Source: Endozoicomonas arenosclerae
GTDB taxonomy: Bacteria > Pseudomonadota > Gammaproteobacteria > Pseudomonadales > Endozoicomonadaceae
NCBI RefSeq assembly: GCF_001562015.1
Contig: NZ_LASA01000080.1
Span: 1-50,534, forward strand
DNA length: 50,534 nt
Direction of reading: 5' to 3'
The notes under the pieces were generated by a model that was given only the letters and a program-made list of their open reading frames with translations, was not told the DNA's origin and made no database searches. The first letter of the stretch is position 1, and each line of letters starts with the position of its first letter. Shown here piece by piece: positions 2,910 to 40,436 of this stretch. Both the position numbers and the translations under genes were made by a program.

Positions 2910-3239
2910 TGTTTCGTCCTTGTGTACTTATTCTTTTCCGGTGAAGTCAGCATCATTGCTGCCGGATGCCTGAATATTAAATAATTATGAATGGAAATGT
3001 AAGAGGCTTTAGTCGTGTTTAAGGTGGTTGGATTAATCGCTTTTTTAAAATTATATAGTCCCTATAAACTACAGTTTGTTCTAATTCATTGATTATAAAA
3101 GTTAAATATATGGTCTGAACTGCTTTCGTTGTTAATCAAAAAAGTGCTCGTATTGATACTGACTTTGAAAAAGGAAGAAGCTTGCAGCTTAATCTAAGCT
3201 CTATACCCATCTTTCCCTCCCGATGCAGCGATCCTGGAT
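2910..3239. other. Divergent intergenic region, autotransporter / proton ATPase
   Basis: A 330-base AT-rich gap with no credible open frame. It must carry promoters for both divergent genes. I see several AT-rich stretches (around 2985-3110) but no -35/-10 pair that I can assign with confidence. The ATPase start has no evident Shine-Dalgarno sequence. Confidence 0.5.
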
Positions 3240-23345: not shown

Positions 23346-24158
23346 ATGAGAGAAGAGGATAAGGCGATCAACGATATACCGGATTTCTCAATTGCAGCGG
23401 ATGAGCGTCCAGGTCGCAGGAAAGCTGCAGCTACTGGCGGAACGCCCCCGGGTAAAAAGGGTGGAGCAGACCGAAGTAACCCGGGTAAAGGTGGAAGCGG
23501 CCTGACCTGGCTATTGCTGGTCATGATCATTGTTCTGGGTGCTGGCGGAGTCTGGCAGTTCAAATTGATGCAGGAGGAGCTTGCTGAGACACGTAAGGCT
23601 TTGGCATCTACCCAGGAAAGGCTCAGTTCGGTGACAGGAGAAGTCACAGCCACTGGAGAGAACCTGGATCAAAGTGGATCAGCCCTTCGTTCAGAACTGA
23701 AAGTGGTGAATTCTGAGATTCGTAAGCTTTGGGATGTAGCAAACAAGAGAAACAGACAGTGGATTTTGATCAATAAGGATAATGTGGTCAAAGCCCTGAA
23801 AGAAGCAGAGGAAGCCGGTAAAACGGCGGATAAGGCATCAGGCCAGCTGAGCAGCCTGCAAAAGCGGATTCGGGAAATGGATCAGCTGATGAAGGCTATC
23901 AGTACAGAGCAGTTGGCTGCCCAGGGCGAGATGACCGAAAGTCTGGCCAGGTTCGACAAGCAGGTGGCTGAAATGAAGAAGCTGGTGGCTGATCAGAAAA
24001 AGCTGCAAACCGAACTGACCGGGAAAGTTGAGGATCAGCAGCAAGCGGTTAAAGCTGTCGACTCATTCAGGGTTCAGGTCAATCGCAAACTGCAACAGTT
24101 GGAAGATACTGTCAGAGATCTGACTCAACCTCCCAAAGAAGGTCTTGGCCTGGAATAA
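23346..24158 (+). CDS. Single-pass membrane protein with periplasmic coiled coil, function unknown
   Basis: A 270-residue protein I do not recognise. Residues 1-52 are cytoplasmic, low in complexity and basic (Gly, Pro, Lys, Arg). A single transmembrane helix lies at about 53-70 (LTWLLLVMIIVLGAGGVW). From about 72 to 265 it is almost wholly alpha-helical with heptad leucines, alanines and many K, E and Q. It is thus anchored in the inner membrane with a long coiled coil outside. It opens a plus-strand run of four genes of unknown function. A 16-base stretch with GAGAA precedes the ATG. Candidate roles are a scaffold or cell-envelope spacer; nothing catalytic is visible. Confidence 0.8.
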   Translation: MREEDKAINDIPDFSIAADERPGRRKAAATGGTPPGKKGGADRSNPGKGGSGLTWLLLVMIIVLGAGGVWQFKLMQEELAETRKALASTQERLSSVTGEVTATGENLDQSGSALRSELKVVNSEIRKLWDVANKRNRQWILINKDNVVKALKEAEEAGKTADKASGQLSSLQKRIREMDQLMKAISTEQLAAQGEMTESLARFDKQVAEMKKLVADQKKLQTELTGKVEDQQQAVKAVDSFRVQVNRKLQQLEDTVRDLTQPPKEGLGLE

Positions 24159-24285: not shown

Positions 24286-25218
24286 ATGGGCTGTTTTCAC
24301 ATAACAGGGCGGTTATGTCTGATAGTTGCTGTCGCAATGATGACGTCTTCCTGCTCAATGCTTGACTGGTTTGGTAGCAGCCAACCAGAAGAATCCAGAT
24401 CAAGAGCGTTTCAGCCATCAGACTGGACTTTTTTTCATCAGTGGCAGCTCGAACATTCCAATCCTGCCTTGCAGACATTGCTTCCGGATCAGGGTAATAC
24501 CCTGACAGGGCAGTGCTCATTCTCTTATGAATTGCTGAAACGGTTGGAAGACGAGCCGAAAGGGCTTCTGGTACCCGTAATAAAAGTGAGTAACGATCTG
24601 ACTTTGTCGCCAGATCTTGAAAACAGTGCAAGGCTTTATAAGGTACTTAGAGGCACATTTCCACTGGGGGGAGTAGGCGACAGTTTAACGTTCTATCAAA
24701 CCTTGCTATCCAGTGTTGAGCACACCTGTCCAGAAAACATGACCCGTGATATTGATAGCTGTCAGTTCAAGAAGTGGATGTCCTATGCCGGTTTAGGCGG
24801 CGACGAATCAATTTATGATGAGAGTCGTCTAAAACGCTGGTACAAGTCACATTCATCTCTGAACTATCTAGTCATGGGTTCCAGTGATTTGTTCAATTCT
24901 GATGCTTTGTTAAATGCTCGCTATTCTTCAAATTCCAGAGTGATAACCAAACAGTCACCAGCAGTCAGGGATGAGAGTATCAGACCTTATGTAGGCAAGG
25001 TACGCTTTGACTGGGTTATTCCTGGTAACAAAGGCAGTAAGCCATTTAATAGTCTTGGATCCTGCACTTTAAGTTGGAAAGAGCTTGAAGAGAAAAGGCG
25101 TATCAATGGTCCAGGCTGGTTGGATACCGAAAAGCTGGCAAAGGTGAATAAGGCTCTATTGCCTTACTTTATAGAGTTTATGGACGAGGCTACCAAGGCA
25201 ATGCCACAACAGCCATAA
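24286..25218 (+). CDS. Putative lipoprotein, function unknown
   Basis: A 310-residue protein with an N-terminal signal ending AVAMMTSSC; Cys23 is a likely lipidation site, though Thr at -3 is not the usual Leu. The mature part is alpha/beta in character with four further cysteines in the first half (QCSFSYELL, HTCPENM, DSCQFKKW) and one near the end (SCTLSWKELEE), which could form disulfides in the periplasm. It includes aromatic-rich patches such as PSDWTFFHQW. I recognise no family. It lies 127 bases after the membrane coiled-coil gene and 43 bases before the 914-residue gene, and probably shares their transcript or locus. Confidence 0.7.
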   Translation: MGCFHITGRLCLIVAVAMMTSSCSMLDWFGSSQPEESRSRAFQPSDWTFFHQWQLEHSNPALQTLLPDQGNTLTGQCSFSYELLKRLEDEPKGLLVPVIKVSNDLTLSPDLENSARLYKVLRGTFPLGGVGDSLTFYQTLLSSVEHTCPENMTRDIDSCQFKKWMSYAGLGGDESIYDESRLKRWYKSHSSLNYLVMGSSDLFNSDALLNARYSSNSRVITKQSPAVRDESIRPYVGKVRFDWVIPGNKGSKPFNSLGSCTLSWKELEEKRRINGPGWLDTEKLAKVNKALLPYFIEFMDEATKAMPQQP

Positions 25219-25261: not shown

Positions 25262-28006
25262 ATGGACAGCATGGATGCTGATCGACCAGGCAGAGGCTTT
25301 CAACCCCGGAGCGGGTTAGAGCCTTCATCCCAATCTAATGATTCTGTCTCTGGTTCAGGGGCTGCTCCCGGCTTGATCCCCCCCAATCTTCACCCCCACA
25401 AAATAGAAACATCCATTTATCAACGTGTCGTAGCTTCCGTAGCGGATATTAAGCACCTGATGGAAGGCATTAGCCTTCAAGTAGATGAAATTCAGTTATC
25501 GGATGAGCAGTTTACCGGGGATGGAGAAATAGATAAGCAACTTATGTTGCTTCGTGTTGAAAGGCTACTGGCCAAGCTGAACATTCTTACGACAGCAGTA
25601 GCTAATTATGGCAAACAGCTGGCTGGCTCCCCTTCTGATCCATCGCTTAGAAGGAGCAGGCAATATCAGCCGGATTTAATACCTCCAAAACTGGAAGAAG
25701 CGCCTCAGCTTGGGGCTGCATTGGCTGTCAGTGATTTAAGGGCTTCTTTGAAAAATTACAAGGAAGTACTAAAAAGGCCAGGCTTTGATAATGCACAGCT
25801 AACGCCGCTCATTAATGATCTGGTTTCAAGGAACGCATCCCTCTGGTATCAAGTAGGTGGTTTGGAGTTTGCCCTAGAGGAGTTGATCCGGGCAGAGACC
25901 CGTATTGTGACGGTTGACGATGTACAGGATGCTATTCGTGAAAGAGTTTTAAATGATAAACACAAAATAGGGTTGTTATCCCGCTGTTGGTTAAAGTTTC
26001 AAAGAGTAATACTGACAGGCATGAATCTGTTTGCGGGTGCTCTCTCTGTAGTCGATAAGATAGGGGATCTTACCGTCAGAGGCTGTATTGGAGTCATGGA
26101 AGGGGCGATGCATTGCATTACCCCTTGTGTCAGAGATGTAATGGGCCCACCCCCTGAGACACTCCTGGCGTCTGAGAGAGTCTTAAGAGAACAGAGATCA
26201 ACTGAAGACAAAAGAGCAAAAAGCCGTCGAGAAAAAAAAGCTCGTCAATCACTGGCATTTAATCCCCATTCTTCCAGGGAACCTGGTGAAGTAGTGACTG
26301 AATTTTCATTGCAGGCACAGAGCCAAAAGCTTGGCAAAAGTGCAGTATTAGCAAGAAATGAGGATTCGAGTAAAAAACCTGTTCCGATAAATACGACAGT
26401 ATCTGGGCATAAACCGGTTAAACAGCAGAGCCCGCCACCTCCAGTCCCGAAAAGACATCATAAAACAGAGAGGAATCCACCTCCTCTTAGGGGGGAGGAA
26501 GCAGAGATGCTAAGTTCCGCACTTAAAACCCGCCTGGGACCCTGGACCAGACAAAAAGCACGAACTCAGGCGAAAGAATCATTTGTCAGACATTTTCAGA
26601 GCAGGGTACCTCCAGAGTCTTTTACTCCATGGCTGGGGACCGATGTTGATCGTTATGTAGATCAGATCCGTTCTTCAGTGAAACAGGAGGCGGATCGAAC
26701 ACAGTCTGATTTAAGTGAGGCCAGAAGACGTTCCGTGTCATCACAAGGTCTGCATTCTGAGCAGGAAAAAGAAGTTGTTCAGCTGGAAGAAAGGCACAGT
26801 TTGCTGGTGGATGAGGGTAAAAATGAAAGGGTCAAAGAACGTTTGTCCTTTTATTCGCCCCAACCCTTGTCACTTGAAGCAATGACTGTCCAGATTGCCG
26901 CGATAAATAGCAGCCTGAAATCAATAGCGAATAGCCAGTCTGTTTCGGAAACACTGGAGGATCTGGAATCCAGCATTGAAGAGCGTGTTGATACTTTAAG
27001 GCAAATGAAGGCTCGATTATATGAGTTGAAAGGTGACAGGGTGGCATTTGATGAACCCATTCTGGACCAGATTGGAGATGGCTTTGAAGCGGCGCGAAAG
27101 GCGAGATTAAGGGTTCGGACTCTGTATGCGTATCGAGTGACTGATCCGGAAACCTGTAAGCAAGGAGTTCAAAATGAGCTTGAAAGGCTTCATCAGGATC
27201 TATCGAAAGAGCATAAAGAGAGTCCGAGACTGATTGATATTCAGAAAGTGCTGCACTGGCTGCATACGAATGAAAGCCATGAAACATTCTGGACAAGATT
27301 GAACGCATTGTTAAACCTTGAGTCTTCAAATCTTAAAGAAATACTCTTTCGTTACTATTCAACGGTCGTACAACATGCCAGGGTCGAGGGGCTGGAAAGA
27401 AGCCTGAGATTACGAAGACATCTTACCAATCACAGAGCCTGCTCCTTCGAGCAGTGGTCGGAAATTGTACAAAAATATCTCTCTGATTCTGAAGGTAACA
27501 GACAATGGATCATAGATGCCGGGCTTGATGAAGACAGATTGTCCAAAGGCGATACGGAATGGCTAAACAAACTGGCCTTGAGAGTCCATTCCATTGGCGA
27601 AAGGCTGGCGCAAAACTGTGCAGCAGGTCTGGAGCCGGAATGGACTGATAGGCCCATTGTACATCTGGCCATGGGGCTGCTAAATCGTTGTCAGGTGGGT
27701 GAAGCCAATCAAGCGTTGCTCTTAGAGTGTTCGTCAGAGCTGAGGATGCCTGTCATCAAGTTGGCAGCAAAAGATTCAGCGTTGTTTCCTCCGGAGTCTT
27801 TCGATCCTTTTCTGAGTGACATTCAATTGACAGAATTGTCATTTAGAAGTCTTGAAAAGCTAGCGTGTAAAATACTCGGCAAACCTTCTCTCGATGAGAA
27901 TGAAATCATAGAACTATCAAGGGTTTACCATAAAATTCTTGATGAGCTAAGAAAACGGGATCAGGGTGAATTCTTTATTCTTGATGGACTGCTGGAAGAC
28001 GATTGA
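25262..28006 (+). CDS. Large helical protein with polyproline segment, function unknown
   Basis: A 914-residue protein with no signal peptide and no family I recognise. Residues 1-45 are disordered (Ser, Gly, Pro). About 50-250 are helical with heptad spacing. About 252-300 form a hydrophobic, weakly amphipathic stretch (LTGMNLFAGALSVVDKIG, with Cys). About 300-420 are basic and disordered and hold PPPPVPKR (391-398), a class II SH3-ligand-like pattern, plus NPPPLRG. From about 420 on it is again mostly helical, ending in acidic FILDGLLEDD. It lies 175 bases before the 3950-residue gene and shares the same Lys/Glu/Arg-rich helical style. It may be a cytoplasmic scaffold or a secreted effector; sequence alone does not decide. 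Confidence 0.75.
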   Translation: MDSMDADRPGRGFQPRSGLEPSSQSNDSVSGSGAAPGLIPPNLHPHKIETSIYQRVVASVADIKHLMEGISLQVDEIQLSDEQFTGDGEIDKQLMLLRVERLLAKLNILTTAVANYGKQLAGSPSDPSLRRSRQYQPDLIPPKLEEAPQLGAALAVSDLRASLKNYKEVLKRPGFDNAQLTPLINDLVSRNASLWYQVGGLEFALEELIRAETRIVTVDDVQDAIRERVLNDKHKIGLLSRCWLKFQRVILTGMNLFAGALSVVDKIGDLTVRGCIGVMEGAMHCITPCVRDVMGPPPETLLASERVLREQRSTEDKRAKSRREKKARQSLAFNPHSSREPGEVVTEFSLQAQSQKLGKSAVLARNEDSSKKPVPINTTVSGHKPVKQQSPPPPVPKRHHKTERNPPPLRGEEAEMLSSALKTRLGPWTRQKARTQAKESFVRHFQSRVPPESFTPWLGTDVDRYVDQIRSSVKQEADRTQSDLSEARRRSVSSQGLHSEQEKEVVQLEERHSLLVDEGKNERVKERLSFYSPQPLSLEAMTVQIAAINSSLKSIANSQSVSETLEDLESSIEERVDTLRQMKARLYELKGDRVAFDEPILDQIGDGFEAARKARLRVRTLYAYRVTDPETCKQGVQNELERLHQDLSKEHKESPRLIDIQKVLHWLHTNESHETFWTRLNALLNLESSNLKEILFRYYSTVVQHARVEGLERSLRLRRHLTNHRACSFEQWSEIVQKYLSDSEGNRQWIIDAGLDEDRLSKGDTEWLNKLALRVHSIGERLAQNCAAGLEPEWTDRPIVHLAMGLLNRCQVGEANQALLLECSSELRMPVIKLAAKDSALFPPESFDPFLSDIQLTELSFRSLEKLACKILGKPSLDENEIIELSRVYHKILDELRKRDQGEFFILDGLLEDD

Positions 28007-28181: not shown

Positions 28182-31100
28182 ATGGATCGCAGAAGCAGTG
28201 GCATTGGCACATCCCAAAGCCATCACCTGAACAGTACATCAGTGCATGGTCCTCTAACTTCTGAGGATCAGAAAAGCAATGGTGTGGGTTCAGTTCAGGT
28301 ACCCAACAAGCTTCTACAGGGCGAACGCCCGATCTCAACCGCTATTGGCGACAGGGATATCACCCATGCTGACGTTGGCGCTCCTTCCATTCCCAAACCA
28401 TACAGTATGCTCTGCAGAGCTACGGCAAATCCGAACACCACAGTTCCTGAACATACCCTTTTCAGACTCAGGGAAAGCATTACCCCCGAAACAGTAGAAA
28501 CGGCCAGTAGAAAAACCAAACAGGAAATGGCTGGGCGAGTTAGAAGGTTGCATGACCAGCTAGGCTGGCGCTTTAAAATGCCAACCAACTCTCAACAGTT
28601 GGAAAATAATCTGAATGGCAGTAACGGACATTTAATGACTCTGGCTATGGCCCGATCCATGATTCATCAGATTGAGGTCTCGGAGGCGGGTGTTGCTGAT
28701 GCGATTACGGCCAGTGGGCAGTCGAAGGAAGCCTGGAAAAAAGGGCTGCTGCAAAGGCATAAGCTGGAAAAAATGCATCGGGAGGTGTTGGCTCTGGCTG
28801 AGTTTTATTGTCAGTTTTATCCTGAACCCCATCAGCCCGAAACGACCGCTCCCCATTCTCACAACGATGATGATCCATTTCGAGACCTTGAAGATATATT
28901 CAGGCAGGAGAAGCTGGGCATGCCGCCACTGGTGCCTACTCTTGCTACTCCCAGACCTCCTGATGGACCTGTCTTGTCACCTCAAAGCCTGGAGTTGTCC
29001 CGGGCCCACCAGGAAGTAAAAGATCTAAGAAGAGAAAAAGAAGATTTAGGTTCCGAACTGCAGCAGGCTCGTAAGCAATTAGCTGAATTAACGGAAGAGG
29101 TGGAGGCACTCAAGCAGAAAGAAGGGAAAGTGCCTGACAGCCTTTCAGAAAGACTCAGTCAGCTTGAGAAAGAGCATGCAGGATTAAAGGACGAACTTAA
29201 GGACAGGGATCGTCAATTACGTCAGAAGCAACATCAGATATTTAACATTAACGGTTCTCCTGCTGGAGCCACCGGCTTATCGAGTGCGGGAGCTGCCGGC
29301 TCTGATGGCATGCTGCGTGAACTGGAAGCTTTGAATAGACAGCTTCAATTCCAGATGAATGAGCAAACCCGAATGCTGGGTGAAAACGGGTTTACTATTT
29401 CCCAGCTCCAGACTCAGGTTATGGCTTCTGGTCAGCAGATAGATCATTTGCAAAGTCAGCTTCAGGCTCAAGCCGTCAACATCAATTCTCTGTTACTGGA
29501 AAAGAACAGGTTAGAGCAGGAACTTCAGGCGGCACATCTGAACCATCAGCAACTTGGTCAGCAAGCTATTTCCGTTCTGGAACAAAAGAACCAGCAATTA
29601 CTGCAACTTCGGCAGGAATATCTGGATAGCTACCAGCAACTTCAAGATGAATTGGAGAATGAAAGGGGCAGGCTGGCAGAGCTTCAGCAGAGTTATAAAA
29701 ATGCTGAAGATCGAGTGGGTGATTTATTCAGGCAGAACGGTTTACTGCATCTTGAGGTTAAGGCTCTTAATGAGCAGCTTGAAGCATTAAAACAAACCGA
29801 TCCTGCAAGGGTGGAGCAGCTTGAAAAGCAGGTTAAGGATCTTACTGAATCCCGTGATCGTTGGGTTATAGCTCATGTAGAAGTCACAGAGAAGAAGAGA
29901 CAAGCTGAAGATAGAGTTCAGCAACTTGAGGAGCAACTTAATGGTATCGAGAAGATCTATAAGACTCAAATAGATCAACTGCAGAGAAAGTTTGATGAAG
30001 TTCAGAGCAGAGCTGTTTCAGCAGAGCAGAAGTTGTCAGTCCTTGATACAGATTATCAAAATGCTCTTGCCCGTGAAGCAGAACTGAAGAAGCAATTAAA
30101 AAATTCCAGAAGAGATCTACAAGAAAAGACTCACGCGCTTCAGAAGCAACAGACTGAATTTGAGGTGAAAGCCAGGTCATTAAAAGAAATTCATCTCGAA
30201 CGGCAGAAGTACGACCGTGAAATTGAAGGTCTGAAGCAAGAAATGATTGAGCTAAACGGCAAGATTCGTAGTGAAAGGTTTTTAAAGGATGAAGCTCTTA
30301 AAGCAAAAGAAAAAGCTGAAGAGCTATTGGCAACCAAACAGTCTGAAATGGAAACATTGCAGCAGAGATATGAAGAAGACCTTAAAGAACTGTCAGAGCT
30401 ACAGGTGCAGTTGGACGAAGCCAGAGGGGATATTCATGCACGTGATGAGTCTTTAGAAAAGCTGGAAAGAGATGCGAAAAAACTGAAGGAAGATCTGGAA
30501 GGCCGGCTGTCTCAAAAGGATAGAGAGTTAGAGAATGTCAGAAAAGAATCTAAAAAGTTAAAAGAAGCAAAGGATGATTTCGAAAGCCGGTTGGGGGAAA
30601 GCGAAAAAAATGTCAAAAGGCTTGAAAGTGATCTGGGTGGGGCCAGAAAAGCGAGAGATACTTCAGAGGCCAGAGTGAAAGAGCTCCAAAAAAAGCTTAC
30701 GGAAGCCAGTGATAATGATTCAAGAGAGAAGAAACAACTCAGAGATCAAATAAGAGTTAAGGAAAAAGCCAGAGCGTCTTCAGCCGGAGAAGCTGAAGAC
30801 TATAAAAGGAAGTTAGAGGCAGTTAAGAAAGAGCGTGATGAAAATAAGAGCTTGAAGGAGATAGCTGAACGCCAACTTTCTGAGATCAGGAAAGAGGAGA
30901 CCTCTTTAAGAGAAGAAGTTCAAAGATTGCAGCGTATTCAGAGTGATGGAATAGAGGAAAGCTCGTCTCATGAGACTGAGATGAAACATATCAGAGAAGA
31001 ACTCAGAAAGGCAGGGCAAAAACATCAAGAAGAGAAAGTCAGATTAGAGTCAGAGATGGAAGAAGTCAAAAGGTCAGAGAAGCTGACACAGATCCAGCTT

Positions 31101-34100
31101 AGAGCCAAAGAAAGAGAATTCGGTGAGTTGCAGTCAAAACTGGAGACCACTGAACGTGAACTCAGGGAAAGAATAGCAAGCCTTGAGAAAGATCTTATCT
31201 CAAAAGACGATGATATTTCTCAAAGAGATCAGGAGCTAGTTGTTGAGAGAAGAAAAGTTCATGAGTTAACGGTAAAGAACTCTGGGCTTGAGGAAGAGAA
31301 GCATAAACTTGAATCATCTCTGGAAGACCTTCGTAGAGAACTGAATTCGGCTCAAAGGGCTACTCAGTCGTCGAAAGAAGAAGTCGTTGAGCATATAAGA
31401 AAATTAGAAGAGGCTGAAGCAAAGGCAGAGAATTTACAAATCAAGTTTGATGAAGCAAAAGAAAAAGAGCGAGAAGCGAGAAAGCGTTTAGCTGCTGCGG
31501 ATGATTCCATTCCTAAATTGAAGGAAACATCAGAACGATATCGTGAAGAGCTTGAGACTAGCCAGCGGGAAGCTGATCAATTAAAGGATCAGCTAGCCAG
31601 TAAAGAAGATGAGCTGGCTGAGGCAAAAATTAGGGAAAATTCATTGTCATCTTCGATCAAATCAAAAGATGACCGGATTCATGAGCTTGAAGAAGCTGAA
31701 GCGGGTTTTAAGACGGAAATTGCAAAAGCAAAAAAAAGAACTCAGGAAAAGCAAGAGAAGGTTAGTGAACTAAGCCAACAAGTAGATAAGCAAAAGCATT
31801 CGGCTGAAAGGCTAGGGCTTCGAATTCAGCAGCTCACGTCTGAAAAGGAATTGAGTGACAATAAAGTACTGGAGCTGGAAGAGAAGGTCCAGAAGATTGA
31901 GCAAGAAAGAGATGAATCCAGGGAAAAACTATTAGAAGCTGAACGTCGTATTCAAAGTGATGGTGATACTACCGAACTTGAAAAATCCAAATGGGAAAGT
32001 CAGCTTGCAACCTTACAGTCTAGGTTGTCTGGCCTGGAAGAACAGCTTTCTGAAGTTGGGAAGACTAGAGATCGCTTTAGGTCAGAGTCTGAGTCTTTGG
32101 TTCATGAACGAGATCAGGCAAGAAAAGATCTTCAAAGCCTTCAGATAAGAGTAGAAAGTCTGGAAAGTCAGCATCTCCTTGAGATGGATAGACTCACCAG
32201 GGAGAGAGATGATTTTAAACTTCAAGTCGAGACATTGGAGCAGAAAGCAGAAGTTTCCTCTGCGGACTGGGAGAAAGAAAAAGCAAGAATTGAGGAAGCT
32301 AAAGATCAACTTTATGGTGATTTAAAAAGCCAGCATGACGAGCTGCTTGAAACAAAAAAGCGTCTTGATCATCAACTTCTGGAATCCCGGGAAGAGGTCA
32401 GGAAGAAAAAGCTTGAGATATCCGATAAAGACGCTCAGCTCGAACAAAAAGAGCAAAGAATCGGATTTATAAATAGCCAGTTGGTTTCTGTGCAGGAAGA
32501 GTTAGCTTTGCTCAAGGACACTTCGAGTTCTTCCAGTAGCCAGCTTGAAGCCAGGGTGAATCAGTTAAATAAGGAAAAGGGAACACTTGAGCAACAGTTG
32601 CAAAAAGAGCAAATGGAGTGGGAGCTTGCGAAAGCAGGCTTAACCAGCAGGGCCACAAAGGCAGAAGAAGAACGCCTTAAGTTTGAAGTTCAATGGTCTT
32701 CCATGAAAGAGGCTCTGGAAGAAAGTCAGGCAAAAGCATCGAAGCTGGATGGGCAGTTCAGAGATCTGACCCGCAATTATGGACTGCTGGAATTAGAGAT
32801 AAAAAGTGTCACAGAGGATAGGGATCAGACGCATACTGCCCTCCTAAAGCAAGGAGAAGAGCTGAAACTGGTTCGGGGCAGTTTTGAAAAGGCTGAAATC
32901 AAGCTGAAGACTTTGAAAAGGCAGCTTGAAGATGAGAAAAGAGATCGATCAGTAGAGGCGACTGATCTTAAAAAACAAATTCATCGGGCTGAAGAAGACA
33001 GGGATCACTTTAAAAGGCTTTCTGAGACTGCAGAGGAACAAAAAAACACCCTGGATAAAAGAGTTTTAGAGCTGGATGAACAGTTGAGGGACAGTGAGAG
33101 AGAAGCCAGGCAGTTACAGAGTAATATTGATGATCTGGGTAGAAGGCATGAAAGAGAGCTTGAGGATGCTCGAAGCCGTAGCAGTCATCTGGAAAAAGAG
33201 CTGGCTCAGCAGGAAAGTCGGCATAAACAGGAAGCTTCAGGTTGGAAAGAAGAAAAGGAACGTCTTACAAGTACACATGAAAAGGTTGTTGTCGATCTTA
33301 AAGAGCAGTTGGATAGCCTCAAACTTTTAAAAACTGAAGTTGATAGCCGAGTTGCAGAGCTTGAGTTGGAAAGCCAGACGAAAGGGCTTTTGTTGCAGAA
33401 GAAATCCGAGGGCCTGAAAGAGCGTGAAGAGGAGGTTGATCGTCTCCAGAATGATGTTGAAGGTTTGCGGAAAGAGCTGAAAGCTCTAACTGATCAAGTC
33501 AGGCAATCAGAGTCTGATCATACTCTTGCACTGAAAGAGAAAGAGCTTGCCAATCTGACATTAACCCAGAGTCTTGAGAAAGAGCAGCGCGATCGAGATA
33601 AGGAAAAGCGAAAATTTGATGAGGCAATTAGTCGTCTCGAGCAGGAACGAAATGATTTGCAGTCCAAGTTATCAGAGCTTCAGGCTGTGGGTCTTGAGAA
33701 GCAGACTCTCTCAGCTGAAGCGAGTCAATTAAAAGATGAACTTCATACAACGCAGGACGAGCTGGAAAAGCTAAAACAGAAAAAGAAAGAAGTGGATCAG
33801 CAGTCAGAAGAAGCTCTCAAGGCCAAAGTGACTGTGCAGAGCCAACTGGAAGCTGAGCAACTCCGGGTCAAAACTCTCTCAGACGAAAAAAAGGAACTGG
33901 AAGAGGCTGTTCGAGTTAAAGAGAGAGCTCTGGAGTTAAAAACCGAAGAACTGGTTGTAGCCAATGACAACCTGCAGCGTGAATCTGAAGCGGTAACCCA
34001 GCTAAGGCTTCAGGTTGACAGGCAGAGTGACTCCGGCAATGAGTCAGATACGGCTTCCTCTGGCCTTTCCAGATTGGAGTCTGTCGATTCAACGGCTTAT

Positions 34101-37100
34101 TCTGATCTTGTCAGTCCATCCTCTGAAGAAGCTTTTGATCTCACTAAAAGATCGAAAACCGAAATTATGCCCGAGTGGACTGAAATCGGGCCAATAGTTT
34201 TAGAAATCAAGGATGACTCTTTCGGTTCTTTGGGTCCAGGCACTTTAGCTATACCCAGCTTGATTCAACGAATGAAAACCGCCTGGTATGAAGTAGCCTC
34301 CCAGCAGGCAAAGTTGGAGCAGAAGCCGACAGTTAATCCTCTGATCCCTTTTGATGCTCTTCCCATCCCCAGCAAAACCGATTTTCGATTAGGCATGAAA
34401 GCCCTTCATGAGAGTTTCCTTAAGGAGCTGGAGTCTGTTGATCAGGCCTATCAGTTGGCAATCGGCAGTACATCAGAAGTACTGATCACTGATGACTTCA
34501 CACGACAGATTGAAATGACCAAGGCCCTGACCCGGGGCAATATTTTGATGCTTGAGAAGAAGCAGGATGATTTTCAGGAACAAGTGGCAAAACTTGCGAC
34601 TTCTCTTGAAGCTTTGAAGCAGAAAAATCCGGAGGCAGGTCCTGAAGATCCTGAAACCATAGTTGACTCAGAACTGACCAATATAGCAACCGTGTTATCG
34701 AAGAATCCGGGTGATATTGGCACAGAGTTTTATACCCATGCCGTATGTGCAATCGTAAAGTCAGCCTCAGAACGTCTGAATGAGTCCTGGAGAAAAAAGG
34801 TCTCGACCATCAGGGAGGCTGACGAAGGGCATCGTGCTCTTCAGCAATATGAATACTCACTGCAACGGTTGGCCCCTGAACATTTACCGCCCAAGCTCAG
34901 AACCAGCGTACCTGAACAAGGTCGTCTGTTTTTATCGAAGCTGGTTGAAGGTCGCAAGACAGAGCTTGAAGCCAAGCTCGATGAACAATTGGGTGGAGGG
35001 AATAAAGCTCTTGCTGGCAATACGCTGGAAGAGCGAATGGTCAAGAATCCTGAGATCTGTGACAGGCTATTAACTCTGGTATCCAGTTTACAGGCTAAGC
35101 ATGAAGGTATTGTAAAGCAACCGATGCCGACAAAACTGTCAGGAACTGCAACACCTTGGGTTGATTTCAGTTATGCCGATGCCTCCCTGGTGGGGCTCAG
35201 CGAGATAAGGGATGAGTTTGGGTTACCTGCCACACCGACAATGGCCAATGTCCTGAAAATCATTCAAAAGGAACTGAAAAGACCGGGGTCGCTGGTTCTG
35301 ACCGTTGCAGTCAAGCAACACAAAGAGAATTATAAAACCGGGAGAGAGAGAGAAACACGTCGAAAAAAACTGGATAAACAATGCTCAGATCTGTTGCAGC
35401 AAGAAGGGAGGCTGACTCCAAAACAAAAGCTGAGAGGGGTGACCCACGACGTCCACTTTCAGCGTCAAAAACACCCTCATGAAGCTGAGATTGCCTGCTT
35501 TCAGCCTGGCTCTCCTGTTCCTCTGGTACAAGTTTCAGAACATGTCCAGGAACAGGCAGGCTTCAATTGCAGTGCTCTGGCCCAGAACCCGAACTGTCTC
35601 ATGAACAGTTTTATGAATGGCTTTAGTAAAACTGCTGTCCATAAAACCAGCATGGTCACTGGTGATCAGTATATAGAACTGTCTGAAGGAGCCCAATGTC
35701 AGCCAGCATTGGTTTTTTACTCTAAAGATGGCAAGCGCTGGAGCATTCAGTTGGATGGACGAACCTTTGATCTGGATCCGGCTTTTATGCATGATCATCC
35801 GAATTATCAGATTCCTTTCCAGATCAGCGCTGAAGGAAGAGAAAAAAAGCGAGACTGGCTTCCACTTAAAAGCGCTTCAGGTCAAACCGTTATTCTCGCT
35901 GCTCAAAAAACACCTACAGAGCAGCAGTGCTTTATGTATGAACTGGGTTCCAATAATCAACTGGTCCCTGTACCCATCAGGGGAGAGAACACCAGAACCG
36001 AGTTAATCCGGGCCAATTTATTAAGCAAGGCCTGTTTGCTGAAGGCGGGTAGCCCCCAGCCAACGGGAGCTCGAAGAAATTATCCACCGGAAGTCCTTGA
36101 ACTTGAGTCGCTGACTAAAACCTGGCTACCCAATGTTTCCCTGCAACAGCTGGATGCTTGTTATAACGAAGTTGTTCGGGAGGTAGACAGCAAGTTACTG
36201 AAACCACCCTTTGCCTGTACACCCTGTGAAGGGCGAGTCAGAAGCCTGCCAGTGGAGCTTCCGGTTCTGAGAAAAGTAGCTCAGGAAAAATCCAGGAAGC
36301 CAAAGACCGGTGCTCATCAGGAAACCTTTCATCCACAACAGTTCACGGGCTTTACGGTAAACGCCAGTTTCGGTCATGTCAGTGATGCGTTTCTCAGAGC
36401 CAAAAGAGAGCTGTTGGATGAAAGTGCTCATGGTGTGACGAAGACACTGGAAGTCCAGCAAAAAGCTTTTCAGGAGCAGGTATTTAAAAACCTGTCAGTC
36501 TATTCCGGCTGTGAGTTGCAATCATCAGGGGCGCATGGACTGCCTGACCCAGTGACATTAAAAAGCAACAGGCAGGCTGTGCTGAGCAATTTTGAAAAAG
36601 TCATCGTTAACAACAGAAAGCATTGTGTACGCACACTTCAGCTGAAAAAAGCCCTTGAAAATGGGCTGGTTACTTATATTCGAAATGCCTCTGAAGACGG
36701 CTTGAAAAGTTTTTCAGATGGCGAGCTTCTCGATCATGCTGTTCGTAACTTTGAGCGTGGTTTGGCTCCGGGTGGTGAGGATGTTGACGGTTTTATCAAG
36801 CGAATGTCTCAGCTGATGCTGGTGGATATTGATCTGGAACAGAGCAGCCTGATTGGTCAGCGTCTTGAGGCGCTTCAGCATGAGCTTGAAGACCTGGACT
36901 TTGCGGCCTTTGAACAGGTCAACGAACCCCATGGGTATATTCGACGCTGTCAGGAGTGGAACCTGAATATGGCTCTGCTGGCTTCTCGACAGAGCAATCT
37001 GAATAACAGAATCAGCAGCTACGAGAATATCTTGCTGGATACAAAAAATCTGGCTTTGTTATCGTTCGAGAGAAGACATCACATTGTATTGTCTCCTGAC

Positions 37101-40034
37101 CAGGCTGAAGAGCTGGCTGTCACTCTCGAGGGGGTCAGCCAGTGGGCTAAGGGTCATGAAGTGGCCATGATGTCTCATAAAGGGACAGGGTACGGTAAAA
37201 GTACACTGCTTCTAGCGCTAACCGACCATGCTTCTGCCCAGCTGGGTCCTGATACCCATCGATCGGTCATTGTTATGGCTCCCAAAACCAACCAGTCTGA
37301 ACTGGATAAAGGATTGCGGGAATATTATGCCCGTAAGGGGCAGAATTATTGTCGATTGAATCTCGAAGCTAGTTTTGTTGCTCCCTGCGAGCTGTCTGTA
37401 GCCAAACTGGTGGAAGTCGAGAATACCCTTTTGGGATTACCCGCTGATACACCCATTGGTTCCAGAAAATCCTTGTTGGCCCAAGGACGTGTGCCAGTTG
37501 GCGCCTCAATCACTGATGTCCAGATACTGATGCATTTAAAGCAGGCTTTGCTGGACGCTGATGGGGTTATACAAGACAGACAGGCGCTGCTGGCTAAAGT
37601 GGATGACTGTCTTGATTTGCTCAGAAATTCAATGGTCTTTGCTGATGAGTTTGACAGTGCAATGGTGCCTCATTCCGCAGCAGAACTGACCTCAGTGGCT
37701 CAGGCGGTTCAGACTATTATCTCAGGGCTTGGATATGAATTCGAAGTAGACCCTCGAAGTATCAACTTGAAACACTCTGAATTTCTGTTTGGATGCAAGG
37801 CGAGACACTTGCTCTCCGCAACCCTGGGAACCTTGTACTGTGCGGCTTTGGCCAGCGCTTCAGGCAGTGCTGAAGAAGTTCGCCACAAAGCCAGAACAGA
37901 CCCTGTTACCACCAACCAGCGTTTCTGGCATTTCCTCTCTCTGGCTGAGCCTGTGTTTTTCAATTCCTCCACCCCTGAGGGCAGGAATAAGTTGCTGACC
38001 GATGTTTTGCACAGAGTAGGTCCTGAGCCACAGATTATATTCTTTGACGGAGCTGAGTCCGGTGAACAATGTACGGAAAAGGCTCACCAGATGAGTCAGA
38101 CATTGAATCAGGAGCGACTGGTCATGGGTGGTGCTCAGAAGTCGGTCATTTATTATGACCATGACAAGAATTTGCAGATGCAGTACCAGGACGATCCGGT
38201 TTATGGACAGGGCGCTACTGCTTCTCCGGAAGCTGTTACAAAACTCAGGCGCAATGGAGGTCAGAGTACCGATGGCTATCTAAGCAAAGAGCAGTCTGTG
38301 GGTACAGATATGCCACAGGGAAGTGCTACCGTTGGTGTTTTCCATGGTCTGGTCGGGCAAGCCGGGGGTGAAGCCAATGAGAATTACCTCGTGCAGCAGC
38401 TTGGGCGCCTGACCCGTGACAGTAAGGACTTGCATAAGGCTCAGAGAGTATTCATGGCAGTAGACCTTGACGCCGTCGAGGGTATTCAAGGGGCGGATAA
38501 ACAAAAAGCTGCCTTTTTGGATGCCAAGAAGGAGTTGGATGAAGCTTTGGCCAAATCTGAGCGTTTATTGCCCGAAGGCTTTGAAAAGGCTCCACCGGCT
38601 TTAAAAAAGGCCATTGAACAGACGCTCACCATTCCGGTGCGTAAAAAAGACGATGAAGGCGGGTTTGCAAAGAGCCTTCCCTCGGTCATAGCAGCCCTGT
38701 CTTTGATGGGTAAAAAAGAGTGGGCTGATTTGGACTTTACTCCAGAAGCATTTCAGGAAATGGTCACTCTGAAAACCCGACAGTGGGCTTGCAAGAATGC
38801 ATGGCTTGAACTGGTAGCAGTTGATATTGCCAATCGTGAGAAAAGTAATCACACCCTGAACTGTGAAGAACAGCTGATGCAGGCCAGAACCAATAGCCAT
38901 TTGGATAAGGTCTATGCCGAAGAGCATCGCTGGTTGAATGGCGAAGGTGTCAGACTGGTGAATGGTTTAAAAGTGCAAGCCAGAGGTATCCCTGCTGAAG
39001 CAGTACCTGTTGTGACCAACACGCTGAAGTCAGAAGTAAAAGGTTTCCTCCAATCGGTTGAGAGAAGGGTTGTCAGGCCAGGCATTGATCAGGAGGACCT
39101 GGTTGATGAAGCAGATGCAAAGCCGATGCGTGAGCGTCTCACCGGTTACTTCGAACAGTTGAAGAGAGAAGGCATCAAGCTGGATGGAAAAGATATGGTG
39201 AGTGAGACAAATCAGAAGCTGGTTGCCGAAAGCATGGTCTCATTGCAAGAAGCTCATGGTCGAATTGGCGCACTGTTTACCATTGTAGATAGGCTAGGAA
39301 ATCGGGCCTCAGGCAAACAGGGCTTCAAGGAGATCATGAACAAACTTGAGGGGAGTATGACAAAGTTGCGTTCAAGGTCTGGTGCTGAGGAAGCCATGAA
39401 GACTGAAGCAACCATTCAGTCTGCCTACAGAGATATGATGGATGCTGTTATGAAAATTGCAGTGTATCCATCAACCACAGATGTCGAAGCCACGGAGAAA
39501 CAAATATTGGCTATAGTGTCTGACTGCGTTGATTTAGACCCATCTTTAAAGTTGTCCCTGAAGGGAAATGGCATGGGCGCCGAGCGAATGAAAGGGATTG
39601 GTTTGAAAGTACCAAAAGATGCTTCTACGACAAAACAATCCTGTGACAAATTCAGGTGGAGAAAAAAATCTACGAATGGAGGCAGGGGAGCACTGATTGG
39701 GAACTCCAAGCAGCCTATTATGGATTGTGATCTTGCACCAGGCCACTTCTCTATTAAGGTTGGCTATATACCGAATAAAACGGCCTTGAGTGCTCTGCAG
39801 CAACAGTCTGCTTCACTCCAGGGCAGGCAGGCTGAGTTAGACCAGGCAATAAAGCTGTGTCAGCACCCAGTCAAAAAAGAGTTCAAGGGTTGTGTAGATG
39901 AAGTCGAAAGGGCATTAATGCAGCAGTTTGATGCCTTTACCAAAGAGCAAAAGAGGGTTACAGAGGGTGAGCAACAGTTAATGCTCAAACAAAGAGAGTT
40001 GAAGCAGAGCAAACTGTACAAAGTACAGGTTTAA
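28182..40034 (+). CDS. Giant coiled-coil protein with a C-terminal SF2 helicase/translocase-like ATPase core
   Basis: A 3950-residue protein, single open frame. Residues 1-270 are mixed, with a His/Pro-rich stretch. Residues about 273-1945 are nearly continuous heptad coiled coil (Glu, Lys, Leu, Gln, Arg), broken at about 360-385 by a Gly/Ala stretch. A Ser/acidic linker follows at about 1947-1990. The C-terminal 1,950 residues are globular and contain an ordered ATPase motif set: Walker A GTGYGKST (3001-3008), APKT after it as motif Ia, Walker B VFADEFDSA (Asp3155, Glu3156), SAT at 3212-3214 as motif III, GTDMPQG (3374-3380) as motif V and QQLGRLTR (3405-3412) as the arginine-finger motif VI. 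This order matches superfamily 2 enzymes, including SecA and DUF3638-like ATPases. No signal peptide or membrane helix is evident. No ribosome site is obvious before the ATG. Function unknown. Confidence 0.85.
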   Translation: MDRRSSGIGTSQSHHLNSTSVHGPLTSEDQKSNGVGSVQVPNKLLQGERPISTAIGDRDITHADVGAPSIPKPYSMLCRATANPNTTVPEHTLFRLRESITPETVETASRKTKQEMAGRVRRLHDQLGWRFKMPTNSQQLENNLNGSNGHLMTLAMARSMIHQIEVSEAGVADAITASGQSKEAWKKGLLQRHKLEKMHREVLALAEFYCQFYPEPHQPETTAPHSHNDDDPFRDLEDIFRQEKLGMPPLVPTLATPRPPDGPVLSPQSLELSRAHQEVKDLRREKEDLGSELQQARKQLAELTEEVEALKQKEGKVPDSLSERLSQLEKEHAGLKDELKDRDRQLRQKQHQIFNINGSPAGATGLSSAGAAGSDGMLRELEALNRQLQFQMNEQTRMLGENGFTISQLQTQVMASGQQIDHLQSQLQAQAVNINSLLLEKNRLEQELQAAHLNHQQLGQQAISVLEQKNQQLLQLRQEYLDSYQQLQDELENERGRLAELQQSYKNAEDRVGDLFRQNGLLHLEVKALNEQLEALKQTDPARVEQLEKQVKDLTESRDRWVIAHVEVTEKKRQAEDRVQQLEEQLNGIEKIYKTQIDQLQRKFDEVQSRAVSAEQKLSVLDTDYQNALAREAELKKQLKNSRRDLQEKTHALQKQQTEFEVKARSLKEIHLERQKYDREIEGLKQEMIELNGKIRSERFLKDEALKAKEKAEELLATKQSEMETLQQRYEEDLKELSELQVQLDEARGDIHARDESLEKLERDAKKLKEDLEGRLSQKDRELENVRKESKKLKEAKDDFESRLGESEKNVKRLESDLGGARKARDTSEARVKELQKKLTEASDNDSREKKQLRDQIRVKEKARASSAGEAEDYKRKLEAVKKERDENKSLKEIAERQLSEIRKEETSLREEVQRLQRIQSDGIEESSSHETEMKHIREELRKAGQKHQEEKVRLESEMEEVKRSEKLTQIQLRAKEREFGELQSKLETTERELRERIASLEKDLISKDDDISQRDQELVVERRKVHELTVKNSGLEEEKHKLESSLEDLRRELNSAQRATQSSKEEVVEHIRKLEEAEAKAENLQIKFDEAKEKEREARKRLAAADDSIPKLKETSERYREELETSQREADQLKDQLASKEDELAEAKIRENSLSSSIKSKDDRIHELEEAEAGFKTEIAKAKKRTQEKQEKVSELSQQVDKQKHSAERLGLRIQQLTSEKELSDNKVLELEEKVQKIEQERDESREKLLEAERRIQSDGDTTELEKSKWESQLATLQSRLSGLEEQLSEVGKTRDRFRSESESLVHERDQARKDLQSLQIRVESLESQHLLEMDRLTRERDDFKLQVETLEQKAEVSSADWEKEKARIEEAKDQLYGDLKSQHDELLETKKRLDHQLLESREEVRKKKLEISDKDAQLEQKEQRIGFINSQLVSVQEELALLKDTSSSSSSQLEARVNQLNKEKGTLEQQLQKEQMEWELAKAGLTSRATKAEEERLKFEVQWSSMKEALEESQAKASKLDGQFRDLTRNYGLLELEIKSVTEDRDQTHTALLKQGEELKLVRGSFEKAEIKLKTLKRQLEDEKRDRSVEATDLKKQIHRAEEDRDHFKRLSETAEEQKNTLDKRVLELDEQLRDSEREARQLQSNIDDLGRRHERELEDARSRSSHLEKELAQQESRHKQEASGWKEEKERLTSTHEKVVVDLKEQLDSLKLLKTEVDSRVAELELESQTKGLLLQKKSEGLKEREEEVDRLQNDVEGLRKELKALTDQVRQSESDHTLALKEKELANLTLTQSLEKEQRDRDKEKRKFDEAISRLEQERNDLQSKLSELQAVGLEKQTLSAEASQLKDELHTTQDELEKLKQKKKEVDQQSEEALKAKVTVQSQLEAEQLRVKTLSDEKKELEEAVRVKERALELKTEELVVANDNLQRESEAVTQLRLQVDRQSDSGNESDTASSGLSRLESVDSTAYSDLVSPSSEEAFDLTKRSKTEIMPEWTEIGPIVLEIKDDSFGSLGPGTLAIPSLIQRMKTAWYEVASQQAKLEQKPTVNPLIPFDALPIPSKTDFRLGMKALHESFLKELESVDQAYQLAIGSTSEVLITDDFTRQIEMTKALTRGNILMLEKKQDDFQEQVAKLATSLEALKQKNPEAGPEDPETIVDSELTNIATVLSKNPGDIGTEFYTHAVCAIVKSASERLNESWRKKVSTIREADEGHRALQQYEYSLQRLAPEHLPPKLRTSVPEQGRLFLSKLVEGRKTELEAKLDEQLGGGNKALAGNTLEERMVKNPEICDRLLTLVSSLQAKHEGIVKQPMPTKLSGTATPWVDFSYADASLVGLSEIRDEFGLPATPTMANVLKIIQKELKRPGSLVLTVAVKQHKENYKTGRERETRRKKLDKQCSDLLQQEGRLTPKQKLRGVTHDVHFQRQKHPHEAEIACFQPGSPVPLVQVSEHVQEQAGFNCSALAQNPNCLMNSFMNGFSKTAVHKTSMVTGDQYIELSEGAQCQPALVFYSKDGKRWSIQLDGRTFDLDPAFMHDHPNYQIPFQISAEGREKKRDWLPLKSASGQTVILAAQKTPTEQQCFMYELGSNNQLVPVPIRGENTRTELIRANLLSKACLLKAGSPQPTGARRNYPPEVLELESLTKTWLPNVSLQQLDACYNEVVREVDSKLLKPPFACTPCEGRVRSLPVELPVLRKVAQEKSRKPKTGAHQETFHPQQFTGFTVNASFGHVSDAFLRAKRELLDESAHGVTKTLEVQQKAFQEQVFKNLSVYSGCELQSSGAHGLPDPVTLKSNRQAVLSNFEKVIVNNRKHCVRTLQLKKALENGLVTYIRNASEDGLKSFSDGELLDHAVRNFERGLAPGGEDVDGFIKRMSQLMLVDIDLEQSSLIGQRLEALQHELEDLDFAAFEQVNEPHGYIRRCQEWNLNMALLASRQSNLNNRISSYENILLDTKNLALLSFERRHHIVLSPDQAEELAVTLEGVSQWAKGHEVAMMSHKGTGYGKSTLLLALTDHASAQLGPDTHRSVIVMAPKTNQSELDKGLREYYARKGQNYCRLNLEASFVAPCELSVAKLVEVENTLLGLPADTPIGSRKSLLAQGRVPVGASITDVQILMHLKQALLDADGVIQDRQALLAKVDDCLDLLRNSMVFADEFDSAMVPHSAAELTSVAQAVQTIISGLGYEFEVDPRSINLKHSEFLFGCKARHLLSATLGTLYCAALASASGSAEEVRHKARTDPVTTNQRFWHFLSLAEPVFFNSSTPEGRNKLLTDVLHRVGPEPQIIFFDGAESGEQCTEKAHQMSQTLNQERLVMGGAQKSVIYYDHDKNLQMQYQDDPVYGQGATASPEAVTKLRRNGGQSTDGYLSKEQSVGTDMPQGSATVGVFHGLVGQAGGEANENYLVQQLGRLTRDSKDLHKAQRVFMAVDLDAVEGIQGADKQKAAFLDAKKELDEALAKSERLLPEGFEKAPPALKKAIEQTLTIPVRKKDDEGGFAKSLPSVIAALSLMGKKEWADLDFTPEAFQEMVTLKTRQWACKNAWLELVAVDIANREKSNHTLNCEEQLMQARTNSHLDKVYAEEHRWLNGEGVRLVNGLKVQARGIPAEAVPVVTNTLKSEVKGFLQSVERRVVRPGIDQEDLVDEADAKPMRERLTGYFEQLKREGIKLDGKDMVSETNQKLVAESMVSLQEAHGRIGALFTIVDRLGNRASGKQGFKEIMNKLEGSMTKLRSRSGAEEAMKTEATIQSAYRDMMDAVMKIAVYPSTTDVEATEKQILAIVSDCVDLDPSLKLSLKGNGMGAERMKGIGLKVPKDASTTKQSCDKFRWRKKSTNGGRGALIGNSKQPIMDCDLAPGHFSIKVGYIPNKTALSALQQQSASLQGRQAELDQAIKLCQHPVKKEFKGCVDEVERALMQQFDAFTKEQKRVTEGEQQLMLKQRELKQSKLYKVQV

Positions 40035-40070: not shown

Positions 40071-40436
40071 ATGTCTATGGTTCCACGCGGCAAGGAGCGC
40101 CGCAGTATCAAGCGTCACCAGTTAAATGATTATCTGACTGTTTATAACAGAAACACGCTCAGGGAAATGGGCAGTATTGGCAACATCAGCAGCAACGGTT
40201 TGATGATGATCAGTACTGTGCCCGTTCTGATCGGGGCGGTTTACAGTATGAGAATTATGTTGCCCGGTAGAGATGAAGAAAAAAGTTATATTGACTTTGA
40301 TGCTCGCTGTCACTGGTGCAAGCCTGATGTAGGGCCTGAGTTTTTTGATTCAGGCTACAGTATTGTCAACGCCGGGCATGATATTATTGATCTGGTTGAA
40401 GCACTCAAGGAGTACTTTTCTTTCACTGAGTGCTGA
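40071..40436 (+). CDS. PilZ-domain protein (c-di-GMP binding)
   Basis: A 121-residue stand-alone PilZ protein. The N-terminal arginine motif is ERRSIKRH (residues about 9-16), corresponding to RxxxR. The second motif NISSNG (about 39-44) corresponds to [D/N]xSxxG. A beta-barrel with MRIMLPGRDE and an end helix ELVEALKEY-like segment follows. Such proteins bind cyclic di-GMP and relay it to motility, adhesion or exopolysaccharide partners. AAAGGA lies about nine bases before the ATG. It starts 36 bases after the giant coiled-coil gene, so it may share that transcript; whether they work together is not shown. Confidence 0.85.
   Translation: MSMVPRGKERRSIKRHQLNDYLTVYNRNTLREMGSIGNISSNGLMMISTVPVLIGAVYSMRIMLPGRDEEKSYIDFDARCHWCKPDVGPEFFDSGYSIVNAGHDIIDLVEALKEYFSFTEC

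What the first reader, a model, noticed from the sequence alone, without database searches (positions are those of the whole stretch)
28182..40034. A 3950-residue coiled coil joined to a complete-looking SF2 ATPase motif set
About 1,670 residues of near-continuous coiled coil (roughly 250 nm if fully extended at 0.1485 nm per residue) precede a C-terminal half with Walker A GTGYGKST, DEFD, SAT, GTDMPQG and QQLGRLTR in the order and spacing expected of SF2 helicases or translocases such as SecA. I know of no described bacterial protein with this architecture. It suggests a long tether or rod that positions a nucleic-acid or protein translocase.
Basis: partly seen in the sequence, partly recalled or inferred. 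Interest (0 to 1): 0.88.

Follow-up and report, generated by a model that had tools for sequence, protein, structure and literature searches.

The report
Giant tethered ATPase of Endozoicomonas symbionts
A marine-animal-associated bacterium makes a 3,950-residue protein that joins a very long coiled stretch to a conserved ATPase of the helicase class, distantly related to a family of unknown function found in other bacteria and in eukaryotes.

Summary
ORF 28182-40034 (+) encodes 3,950 residues: a Ser/Gly-rich start, a conserved ~200-residue region, about 1,570-1,670 coil-like residues, and a C-terminal half with SF2 motifs. All 10 sampled genomes of its genus keep a 3,371-4,111-residue ORF. 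The ATPase evolves slowest (dN/dS about 0.05). Lys3006, Glu3156 and Arg3412 are kept in 16 of 16 aligned homologues and in two found later.

It is not SecA-like. Profile comparison puts both lobes nearest the core of DUF3638 proteins (95.1% and 94.3%; SecA under 1%; seven other SF2 groups at most 64%). Yet no family member reaches Pfam's DUF3638 cut-off, so it is a divergent sister branch, not a member.

The coil is not universal: three copies read from genus g7 have a repetitive, probably disordered stretch instead, and 11 DUF3638 giants lack a coil.

Most likely an NTP-driven translocase or remodeller held at a distance from an N-terminal anchor. Substrate, location and fold are unproven; structure prediction failed (pLDDT 35.6).

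The parts
28182..40034 (+). giant gene, 3950 aa
   Evidence: homologues in 19 of 57 relatives, own genome included
28182..28400 (+). residues 1-73: Ser/Gly/Pro-rich, low-hydrophobicity start, no evident Sec signal peptide (by eye)
28401..28961 (+). residues ~74-260: conserved N-terminal region (candidate anchor)
   Evidence: for residues 61-260, 72-76% identity to the three closest relatives and 19-24% to the six others of the genus
28998..34016 (+). residues 273-1945: coil-like spacer, near-continuous from about 376
   Evidence: 51-93 coil-like windows in each of 10 genus members
34089..36998 (+). residues 1970-2939: conserved middle region of unknown fold
   Evidence: conserved columns; no match of residues 2080-2840 to DUF3638 giants; no Pfam family over cut-off in the window's row
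36999..38591 (+). residues 2940-3470: two-lobe SF2-type ATPase core
37182..37205 (+). motif I / Walker A GTGYGKST (3001-3008)
   Evidence: K3006 16/16
37644..37655 (+). motif II / Walker B DEFD (3155-3158)
   Evidence: D3155, E3156 16/16
37815..37823 (+). motif III SAT (3212-3214)
   Evidence: A3213, T3214 16/16
38301..38321 (+). motif V GTDMPQG (3374-3380)
   Evidence: G3374, Q3379 16/16; T3375, D3376 15/16; GTD..Q also in the aligned DUF3638-protein row and consensus
38394..38417 (+). motif VI QQLGRLTR (3405-3412)
   Evidence: Q3405, G3408, R3409, R3412 16/16
38499..40031 (+). residues 3440-3950: C-terminal region of unknown fold, dN/dS 0.14-0.17
   Evidence: residues 3440-3900 do not match DUF3638 giants
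23346..24158 (+). upstream neighbour: protein with one TM-like stretch (by eye); homologues upstream of the gene in several g1 and g7 genomes
   Evidence: seen in L024-L027, L032, L036, L039, L040; other stretches end before it or do not show it
24286..25218 (+). upstream neighbour: putative lipoprotein (by eye)
   Evidence: seen in L024-L027, L030, L032
25262..28006 (+). upstream neighbour, 914 aa, no Pfam family over cut-off; no homologue of 150 aa or more beside the gene in G002-G004

Best explanation
A single-copy giant ATPase of Endozoicomonadaceae. Shown: an SF2 motif set spread over two lobes, distantly related to the core of DUF3638 proteins, sits behind a very long spacer (coil-like in this genus). 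Inferred: the lobes form a RecA-like pair that binds NTP through Walker A (K3006) and Walker B (D3155/E3156), closes through the motif VI arginines (R3409/R3412), and uses the cycle to translocate on or remodel a polymer, most likely RNA or DNA. The N-terminal region anchors the protein (to a partner, a cell structure or the membrane-linked neighbours), and the spacer sets how far the engine works from that anchor; if the coil pairs two chains it also pairs two engines.
For: Motifs I, II, III, V and VI kept in order in 16 homologues, down to 25% identity to the window over the core and 19% over residues 2080-3900. ATPase dN/dS 0.04-0.05 against 0.22-0.25 in the coil. Each lobe matches the DUF3638-protein core (95.1%, E 3e-8; 94.3%, E 1.1e-7); a reversed alignment and 20 column shuffles of A1 give at most 0.6%. 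Two of 16 members match a PHROGs DNA-helicase family (best E 1.5e-4). Present in 10 of 10 genus members and 19 of 36 family genomes, at one chromosomal place in g1 and in 5 of 7 g7 genomes, single copy in its own genome. Spacer is a long coil in all 10 genus members.
Against: No structure: pLDDT 35.6. No meaningful PDB sequence match. No nucleic-acid-binding domain recognised. The profile kinship rests on 16 and 11 sequences at 14-18% identity over the aligned columns; lobe 2 falls to 84.3% (E 7.2e-6) against the full-length DUF3638 alignment. The coil is absent from g7 copies that keep the ATPase. The gene is split in G030 and broken in G031, so it is dispensable there. Dimerisation, anchoring, substrate and location are inference.
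Confidence: 0.5

Rival explanations
1. A giant effector delivered into the animal host cell by the type III secretion system, where the ATPase acts on host nucleic acid or protein and the coil binds host structures.
For: Ser/Thr/Pro/Gly make up 32-52% of the first 50 residues in the 10 family proteins looked at (window included; no background was computed), with no evident Sec signal; a T3SS secretin is over cut-off in 35 of 36 family genomes; in the samples the gene occurs only in this family; DUF3638 is listed among the large gene families in a paper on microsporidian host-exposed proteins (PMC5423893, a figure-legend passage).
Against: T3SS is near universal in the family while the gene is in 19 of 36 genomes, so co-occurrence says nothing. 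No secretion signal was tested. About 430 kDa (estimate) would be exceptional for that route (recalled). Its fixed place beside UPF0029 and exonuclease I genes is unlike many effectors (judgement).
Confidence: 0.25
2. Mainly a structural or adhesive rod; the ATPase is a passenger without catalysis.
For: Nearly half the protein is spacer; the distant copy L131 has no GTD in motif V and an altered motif III.
Against: The ATPase is the most conserved part and its catalytic residues are invariant in 16 of 16; what differs between genera is the spacer.
Confidence: 0.1
3. A SecA-like protein translocase on a rod.
For: A two-lobe SF2 motif set is shared in general terms (SecA's class is recalled).
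Against: hhalign against an alignment of 10 SecA sequences (of 12 loci; two under 700 residues were dropped) gives 0.3% (core) and 0.7% (lobe 2); the genome has its own SecA.
Confidence: 0.03
4. An SMC/Rad50-like chromosome organiser (coil plus ABC-type ATPase).
For: The coil matches SMC models (E 3.6e-26, but 91.3 bits against a cut-off of 567.35).
Against: The best match lies in the coil (1057-1330); no ABC ATPase family appears in the Pfam or NCBIfam tables, and the motifs are SF2 motifs, all C-terminal to the coil. In SMC proteins the coil separates two halves of one head (recalled).
Confidence: 0.03

Closest known systems
DUF3638 (PF12340)/DUF3645 (PF12359) giant proteins
   Same: Size (11 ORFs fetched from 5 class genomes: 3200-4200 aa, one of them cut by a contig end). 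Walker A (GGGK or GSGK) and DE in all 11, Q...R.R in all 11, a conserved G.D in motif V. Profile match of both lobes
   Different: The window protein has no PF12340 match; g7 copies score 20.9-25.3 bits against the cut-off of 31. Regions outside the ATPase do not match (0.0-0.1%). None of the 11 has more than 3 coil-like windows. DUF3645 itself matched only weakly in one DUF3638 giant (E 0.16)
ResIII-type SF2 helicases
   Same: SF2 motifs; best of seven groups 50.6% (core) and 64.2% (lobe 2, 49 columns of motifs V-VI)
   Different: Weaker or shorter match than to DUF3638 proteins. Note that the DUF3638 core itself matches one of these groups at 82.3%, in line with an SF2 origin of both
SecA
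   Same: SF2 ATPase in general terms (recalled)
   Different: No profile similarity (0.3% and 0.7%)
SMC/Rad50
   Same: Long coiled coil joined to an ATPase (recalled for SMC/Rad50)
   Different: ATPase motifs and domain order differ

Membership tests
SF2 helicase/translocase superfamily | Motifs I, II, III, V, VI in order over two lobes | tested here: met
   16 of 16 for K3006, D3155, E3156, G3374, Q3405, R3409, R3412; of two further homologues, both keep motifs I, II and the motif VI arginines, one lacks GTD
SF2 helicase/translocase superfamily | Two RecA-like folds | tested here: inconclusive
   pLDDT 35.6 with two sequences, not interpretable
SF2 helicase/translocase superfamily | NTP hydrolysis coupled to a nucleic acid or polypeptide | not testable with these tools
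   needs biochemistry
DUF3638 (PF12340) | Score over Pfam's gathering cut-off (31 bits) | tested here: not met
   window: no match; family members that match score 20.9-25.3 bits
DUF3638-like superfamily (my term) | Profile-profile similarity of both lobes above other SF2 groups | tested here: met
   95.1% and 94.3% (84.3% for lobe 2 against the full-length alignment) against at most 64.2% for seven other groups and 0.7% for SecA; reversed and shuffled A1 at most 0.6%
SecA | Profile similarity to SecA | tested here: not met
   0.3% and 0.7%
SMC/Rad50 | ABC-type ATPase head | tested here: not met
   no ABC family in the tables; SF2 motifs instead
Type III secreted effector | Secretion-system-dependent export | not testable with these tools
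   only N-terminal composition was looked at

The most novel reading that the evidence does not exclude
Endozoicomonadaceae carry a new clade of giant 'reach' ATPases: an SF2 engine related to the function-unknown DUF3638 proteins stays fixed while the 1,000-1,700-residue spacer between it and an N-terminal anchor differs between lineages (coiled coil or disordered repeats), letting the engine act on host or bacterial nucleic acid at a distance. It would be a tractable bacterial handle on the DUF3638 superfamily.
Probability: 0.25. Interest if true: 0.8.

Novelty: new variant of a known kind. Interest (0 to 1): 0.6.

Why it matters
DUF3638 proteins are giant in the 11 bacterial cases fetched here and are reported in eukaryotes; the passages I saw in the four papers found in the held library give no mechanism. 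Seeing SF2-type motifs shared between their core and this bacterial family gives a testable hypothesis (an ATPase stimulated by a polymer). The occurrence of a coil in one genus and a disordered stretch in another, in front of the same engine, is a natural experiment on what such a spacer is for. Endozoicomonas is described as a common coral symbiont (abstracts); that much of its host-interaction machinery is unassigned is my judgement.

Tried and rejected
PDB sequence searches with the C-terminal half (0 hits), the core profile (4 weak hits, best 7uek_A 'OT3', E 0.0019 over 53 columns outside the motifs, rejected) and the longer profile (2 weak hits, best E 0.29, rejected).

AlphaFold2 on residues 2853-3480 with the window and L023 only: pLDDT 35.6, so no fold search was run on it.

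PADLOC (E2 in 4, Cas3 in 3, typeIV DinG in 1 of 16 members, best E 0.001; none for the window) does not support a defence system. PHROGs (a DNA-helicase family in 2 of 16, best E 1.5e-4; two other families in 1 each; none for the window) fits SF2 kinship but not a phage origin. Viral contigs: 62 stretches matched a pattern, none encoded a relative.

Heptad-preserving indels: 6 of 22 coil indels between the window and three relatives are multiples of 7 (shared indels counted more than once), no clear sign of heptad selection. Tandem DNA repeats in the window gene: none. Promoter-like (12, shuffles 19.3) and terminator-like (19, shuffles 19.6) sites are no more than chance.

SecA, SMC and pure-rod readings were put low for the reasons given under rivals. 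T3SS co-occurrence was tried as evidence for an effector and is uninformative.

Full report
What is there. The ORF at 28182-40034 (+) encodes 3,950 residues without interruption. Residues 1-73 are Ser/Gly/Pro-rich; ~74-260 are a conserved region; 273-1945 are coil-like; 1970-3950 are a non-coil half with SF2 motifs at 3001-3008, 3155-3158, 3212-3214, 3374-3380 and 3405-3412. Single-protein Pfam shows no ATPase (three under-cut-off matches, all in the coil region), and NCBIfam shows SMC-type and helix-rich models far below cut-off, so an automatic annotation would probably see only a coil.

Is the coil real? 273-1945 hold four prolines. 51 of 109 windows in 376-1945 have 3.5-residue hydrophobic periodicity at z>3, against 6 of 131 in 1970-3950. 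With a composite score (few prolines, high charge, periodicity), each of the 10 genus members has 51-93 coil-like windows. Of the other family rows, L035-L038 have 0-3, L033 and L034 (cut by contig ends) 3 and 5, the distant L130 has 5 and the distant L131 has 71 of 267. The 11 DUF3638 giants have 0-3. These are my own scores.

Is it a gene and a family? A protein search of 57 relatives, own genome included, found 17 with matches; a profile of the core found 19: 10 of 10 in genus g1, 7 of 11 in g7, 2 of 3 in g6, 0 of 12 in the other genera of the family, hence 19 of 36 in the family, and 0 of 21 in other families of the order. In a class sample of 369 genomes and a phylum sample of 398 only the own genome matched; in the rows shown there at most three first-look candidates per genome were scored, so weak relatives could be missed. 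The genus is that of Endozoicomonas sp. ISHI1: L023's contig has the length of G004:C132. ORF lengths are mechanical; those of L025-L027 and L031 begin upstream of the ATG that aligns with the window's.

Place on the chromosome. A UPF0029 gene (window 40510) lies downstream in 8 of 9 g1 relatives (not found as an ORF of 150 aa or more in L025) and in 5 of 7 g7 genomes; of the other two, L034's contig is too short and L130 (G020) has other neighbours. Exonuclease I (window 41136) follows in most of these. Upstream lie homologues of 23346 and 24286 where the stretch reaches, and a gene that I recognise as superoxide dismutase from recall (window 22448; no family search was run on it). The g6 copies (L037, L038, L131) share no neighbours with the window in the stretches fetched. 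G030 carries the gene as two ORFs and G031 as a broken copy, so some lineages do without it.

Constraint. dN/dS by Nei-Gojobori against three close relatives is 0.04-0.05 in the ATPase, 0.14-0.15 in the middle, 0.14-0.17 in the C-terminus, 0.17-0.19 in the N-terminus and 0.22-0.25 in the coil; dS is 0.92-2.06, partly saturated, so these are rough.

Is it an SF2 ATPase? In 16 homologues (window, 9 other g1, 4 g7, 2 g6 from one genome; L039 and L040 left out as split or broken), K3006, D3155, E3156, A3213, T3214, G3374, Q3379, Q3405, G3408, R3409 and R3412 are 16/16, T3375 and D3376 15/16. Two homologues not used to build the profile keep Walker A, DE and the motif VI arginines; L131 has no GTD and an altered motif III.

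Which SF2? Four of 16 members hit PF12340 (DUF3638), best E 1.2e-4, at 20.9-23.4 bits against the cut-off of 31; in a genome scan five g7 copies score 21.5-25.3 bits. PF12340 occurs in 7 of 369 class genomes, 5 over cut-off, with 13 matches; 11 lie in open frames of 3,213-4,201 residues, two weak ones in 713 and 1,124, which I dropped. The 11 were aligned. In the relatives PF12340 is over cut-off in 4 of 57: G016 and G021, family genomes without the window's gene; G019, which also has L131; and G052 of another family.

hhalign of the window family's core against the 11-sequence core: 95.1%, E 3e-8, 182 columns, starting before Walker A and ending after Walker B; the longer profile against the full-length alignment: 95.4%, E 1.8e-8, 297 columns. 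Lobe 2 alone: 94.3%, E 1.1e-7, 257 columns against the core, 84.3%, E 7.2e-6 against the full-length alignment; the alignment pairs GTD..Q and the motif VI region. Controls: 10 SecA sequences, 0.3% and 0.7%; seven groups from 30 ResIII loci (15, 6, 4, 2 and three single sequences), at most 50.6% for the core and 64.2% for lobe 2. Smaller control groups make weaker profiles, which favours the DUF3638 comparison somewhat. The DUF3638 core matches one of these groups at 82.3%, consistent with SF2 ancestry. Reversed A1: 0.1%; 20 column shuffles: 0.0-0.6%. The middle and C-terminal regions have no match. So the ATPase is a divergent sister of the DUF3638-protein core; by Pfam's threshold it is not a member.

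The spacer. In three g7 copies (L035, L036, L039) the place of the coil holds roughly 1,100-1,200 residues (somewhat less in L039) of repetitive Ser/Thr/Pro/Gly-rich sequence, judged by eye from the printed proteins and presumed disordered. L131, in g6, has a coil with 3.7 copies of a 387-bp repeat at 98% matches. Which state is ancestral was not tested. The engine is constant and the spacer differs, which weakens a strict rod reading and favours a tether of variable make-up.

How it works (inference). An N-terminal anchor, a spacer, and an NTP-driven two-lobe engine followed by a C-terminal region. I put nucleic acid first as substrate because most SF2 proteins act on it (general knowledge, not a call). 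A T3SS-exported effector is the main rival: a T3SS secretin is over cut-off in 35 of 36 family genomes, and passages of a review list T3SS and effectors in an Endozoicomonas isolate (PMC12491435), but neither discriminates.

What is in print. DUF3638, DUF3645 and DUF6606 gave four papers in the held library. I saw one passage of each: Tetrahymena (PMC12615304: widely distributed in eukaryotes, mechanism undefined), microsporidia (PMC5423893, figure legend), Aspergillus (PMC6237848, table) and Hypomyces (PMC6627653). None of these passages gives a mechanism. Listings for Endozoicomonas with coiled-coil, effector or giant/kDa terms and for giant genes with coiled-coil and helicase (0 papers) showed no description of this protein; apart from the passages of PMC12491435 I did not read those papers. 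Many subscription papers and all bioRxiv preprints are missing from the library.

Limits. Samples hold one genome per species and are not exhaustive. L038 lies next to another 1,638-residue ORF and may be part of a longer gene.

Noticed in passing
44930-46939 (-): 669-aa protein with a signal-peptide-like start (by eye) and a CVNH (cyanovirin-N-like) domain, 31 bits against a cut-off of 24.5.
   Followed up: no
25262-28006 (+): 914-aa gene directly upstream with a similar Ser/Gly/Pro-rich start; homologues at 22-29% identity in six genus members (in two ORFs in G006), none of 150 aa or more seen in G002-G004; no paralogue in its own genome.
   Followed up: partly
L131:6031-7453: The distant giant in G019 has 3.7 copies of a 387-bp repeat at 98% matches inside its coil, which looks like recent lengthening by whole 129-residue units.
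   Followed up: partly
L133, L135: DUF3638 matches over cut-off in open frames of 3384 and 3465 residues, in two genomes of the same family (G021, G016) that lack the window's gene.
   Followed up: no
L039, L040: The giant is split into 2411- and 789-aa ORFs in G030 and broken by several stops in G031, at the shared place.
   Followed up: no
L038:8548-18512: Second family member in G014 is a 1635-aa ORF next to a 1638-aa ORF on the same strand, possibly parts of one gene.
   Followed up: no
G014:C40:908-1075 (not fetched): A weak PF12340 match (16 bits) in a 1774-residue open frame on a third contig of G014, perhaps another relative.
   Followed up: no
40071-40436 (+): Small PilZ-domain ORF just downstream of the giant (25.4 bits against a cut-off of 22.5); its presence in relatives was not tested because only ORFs of 150 aa or more were compared.
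   Followed up: no
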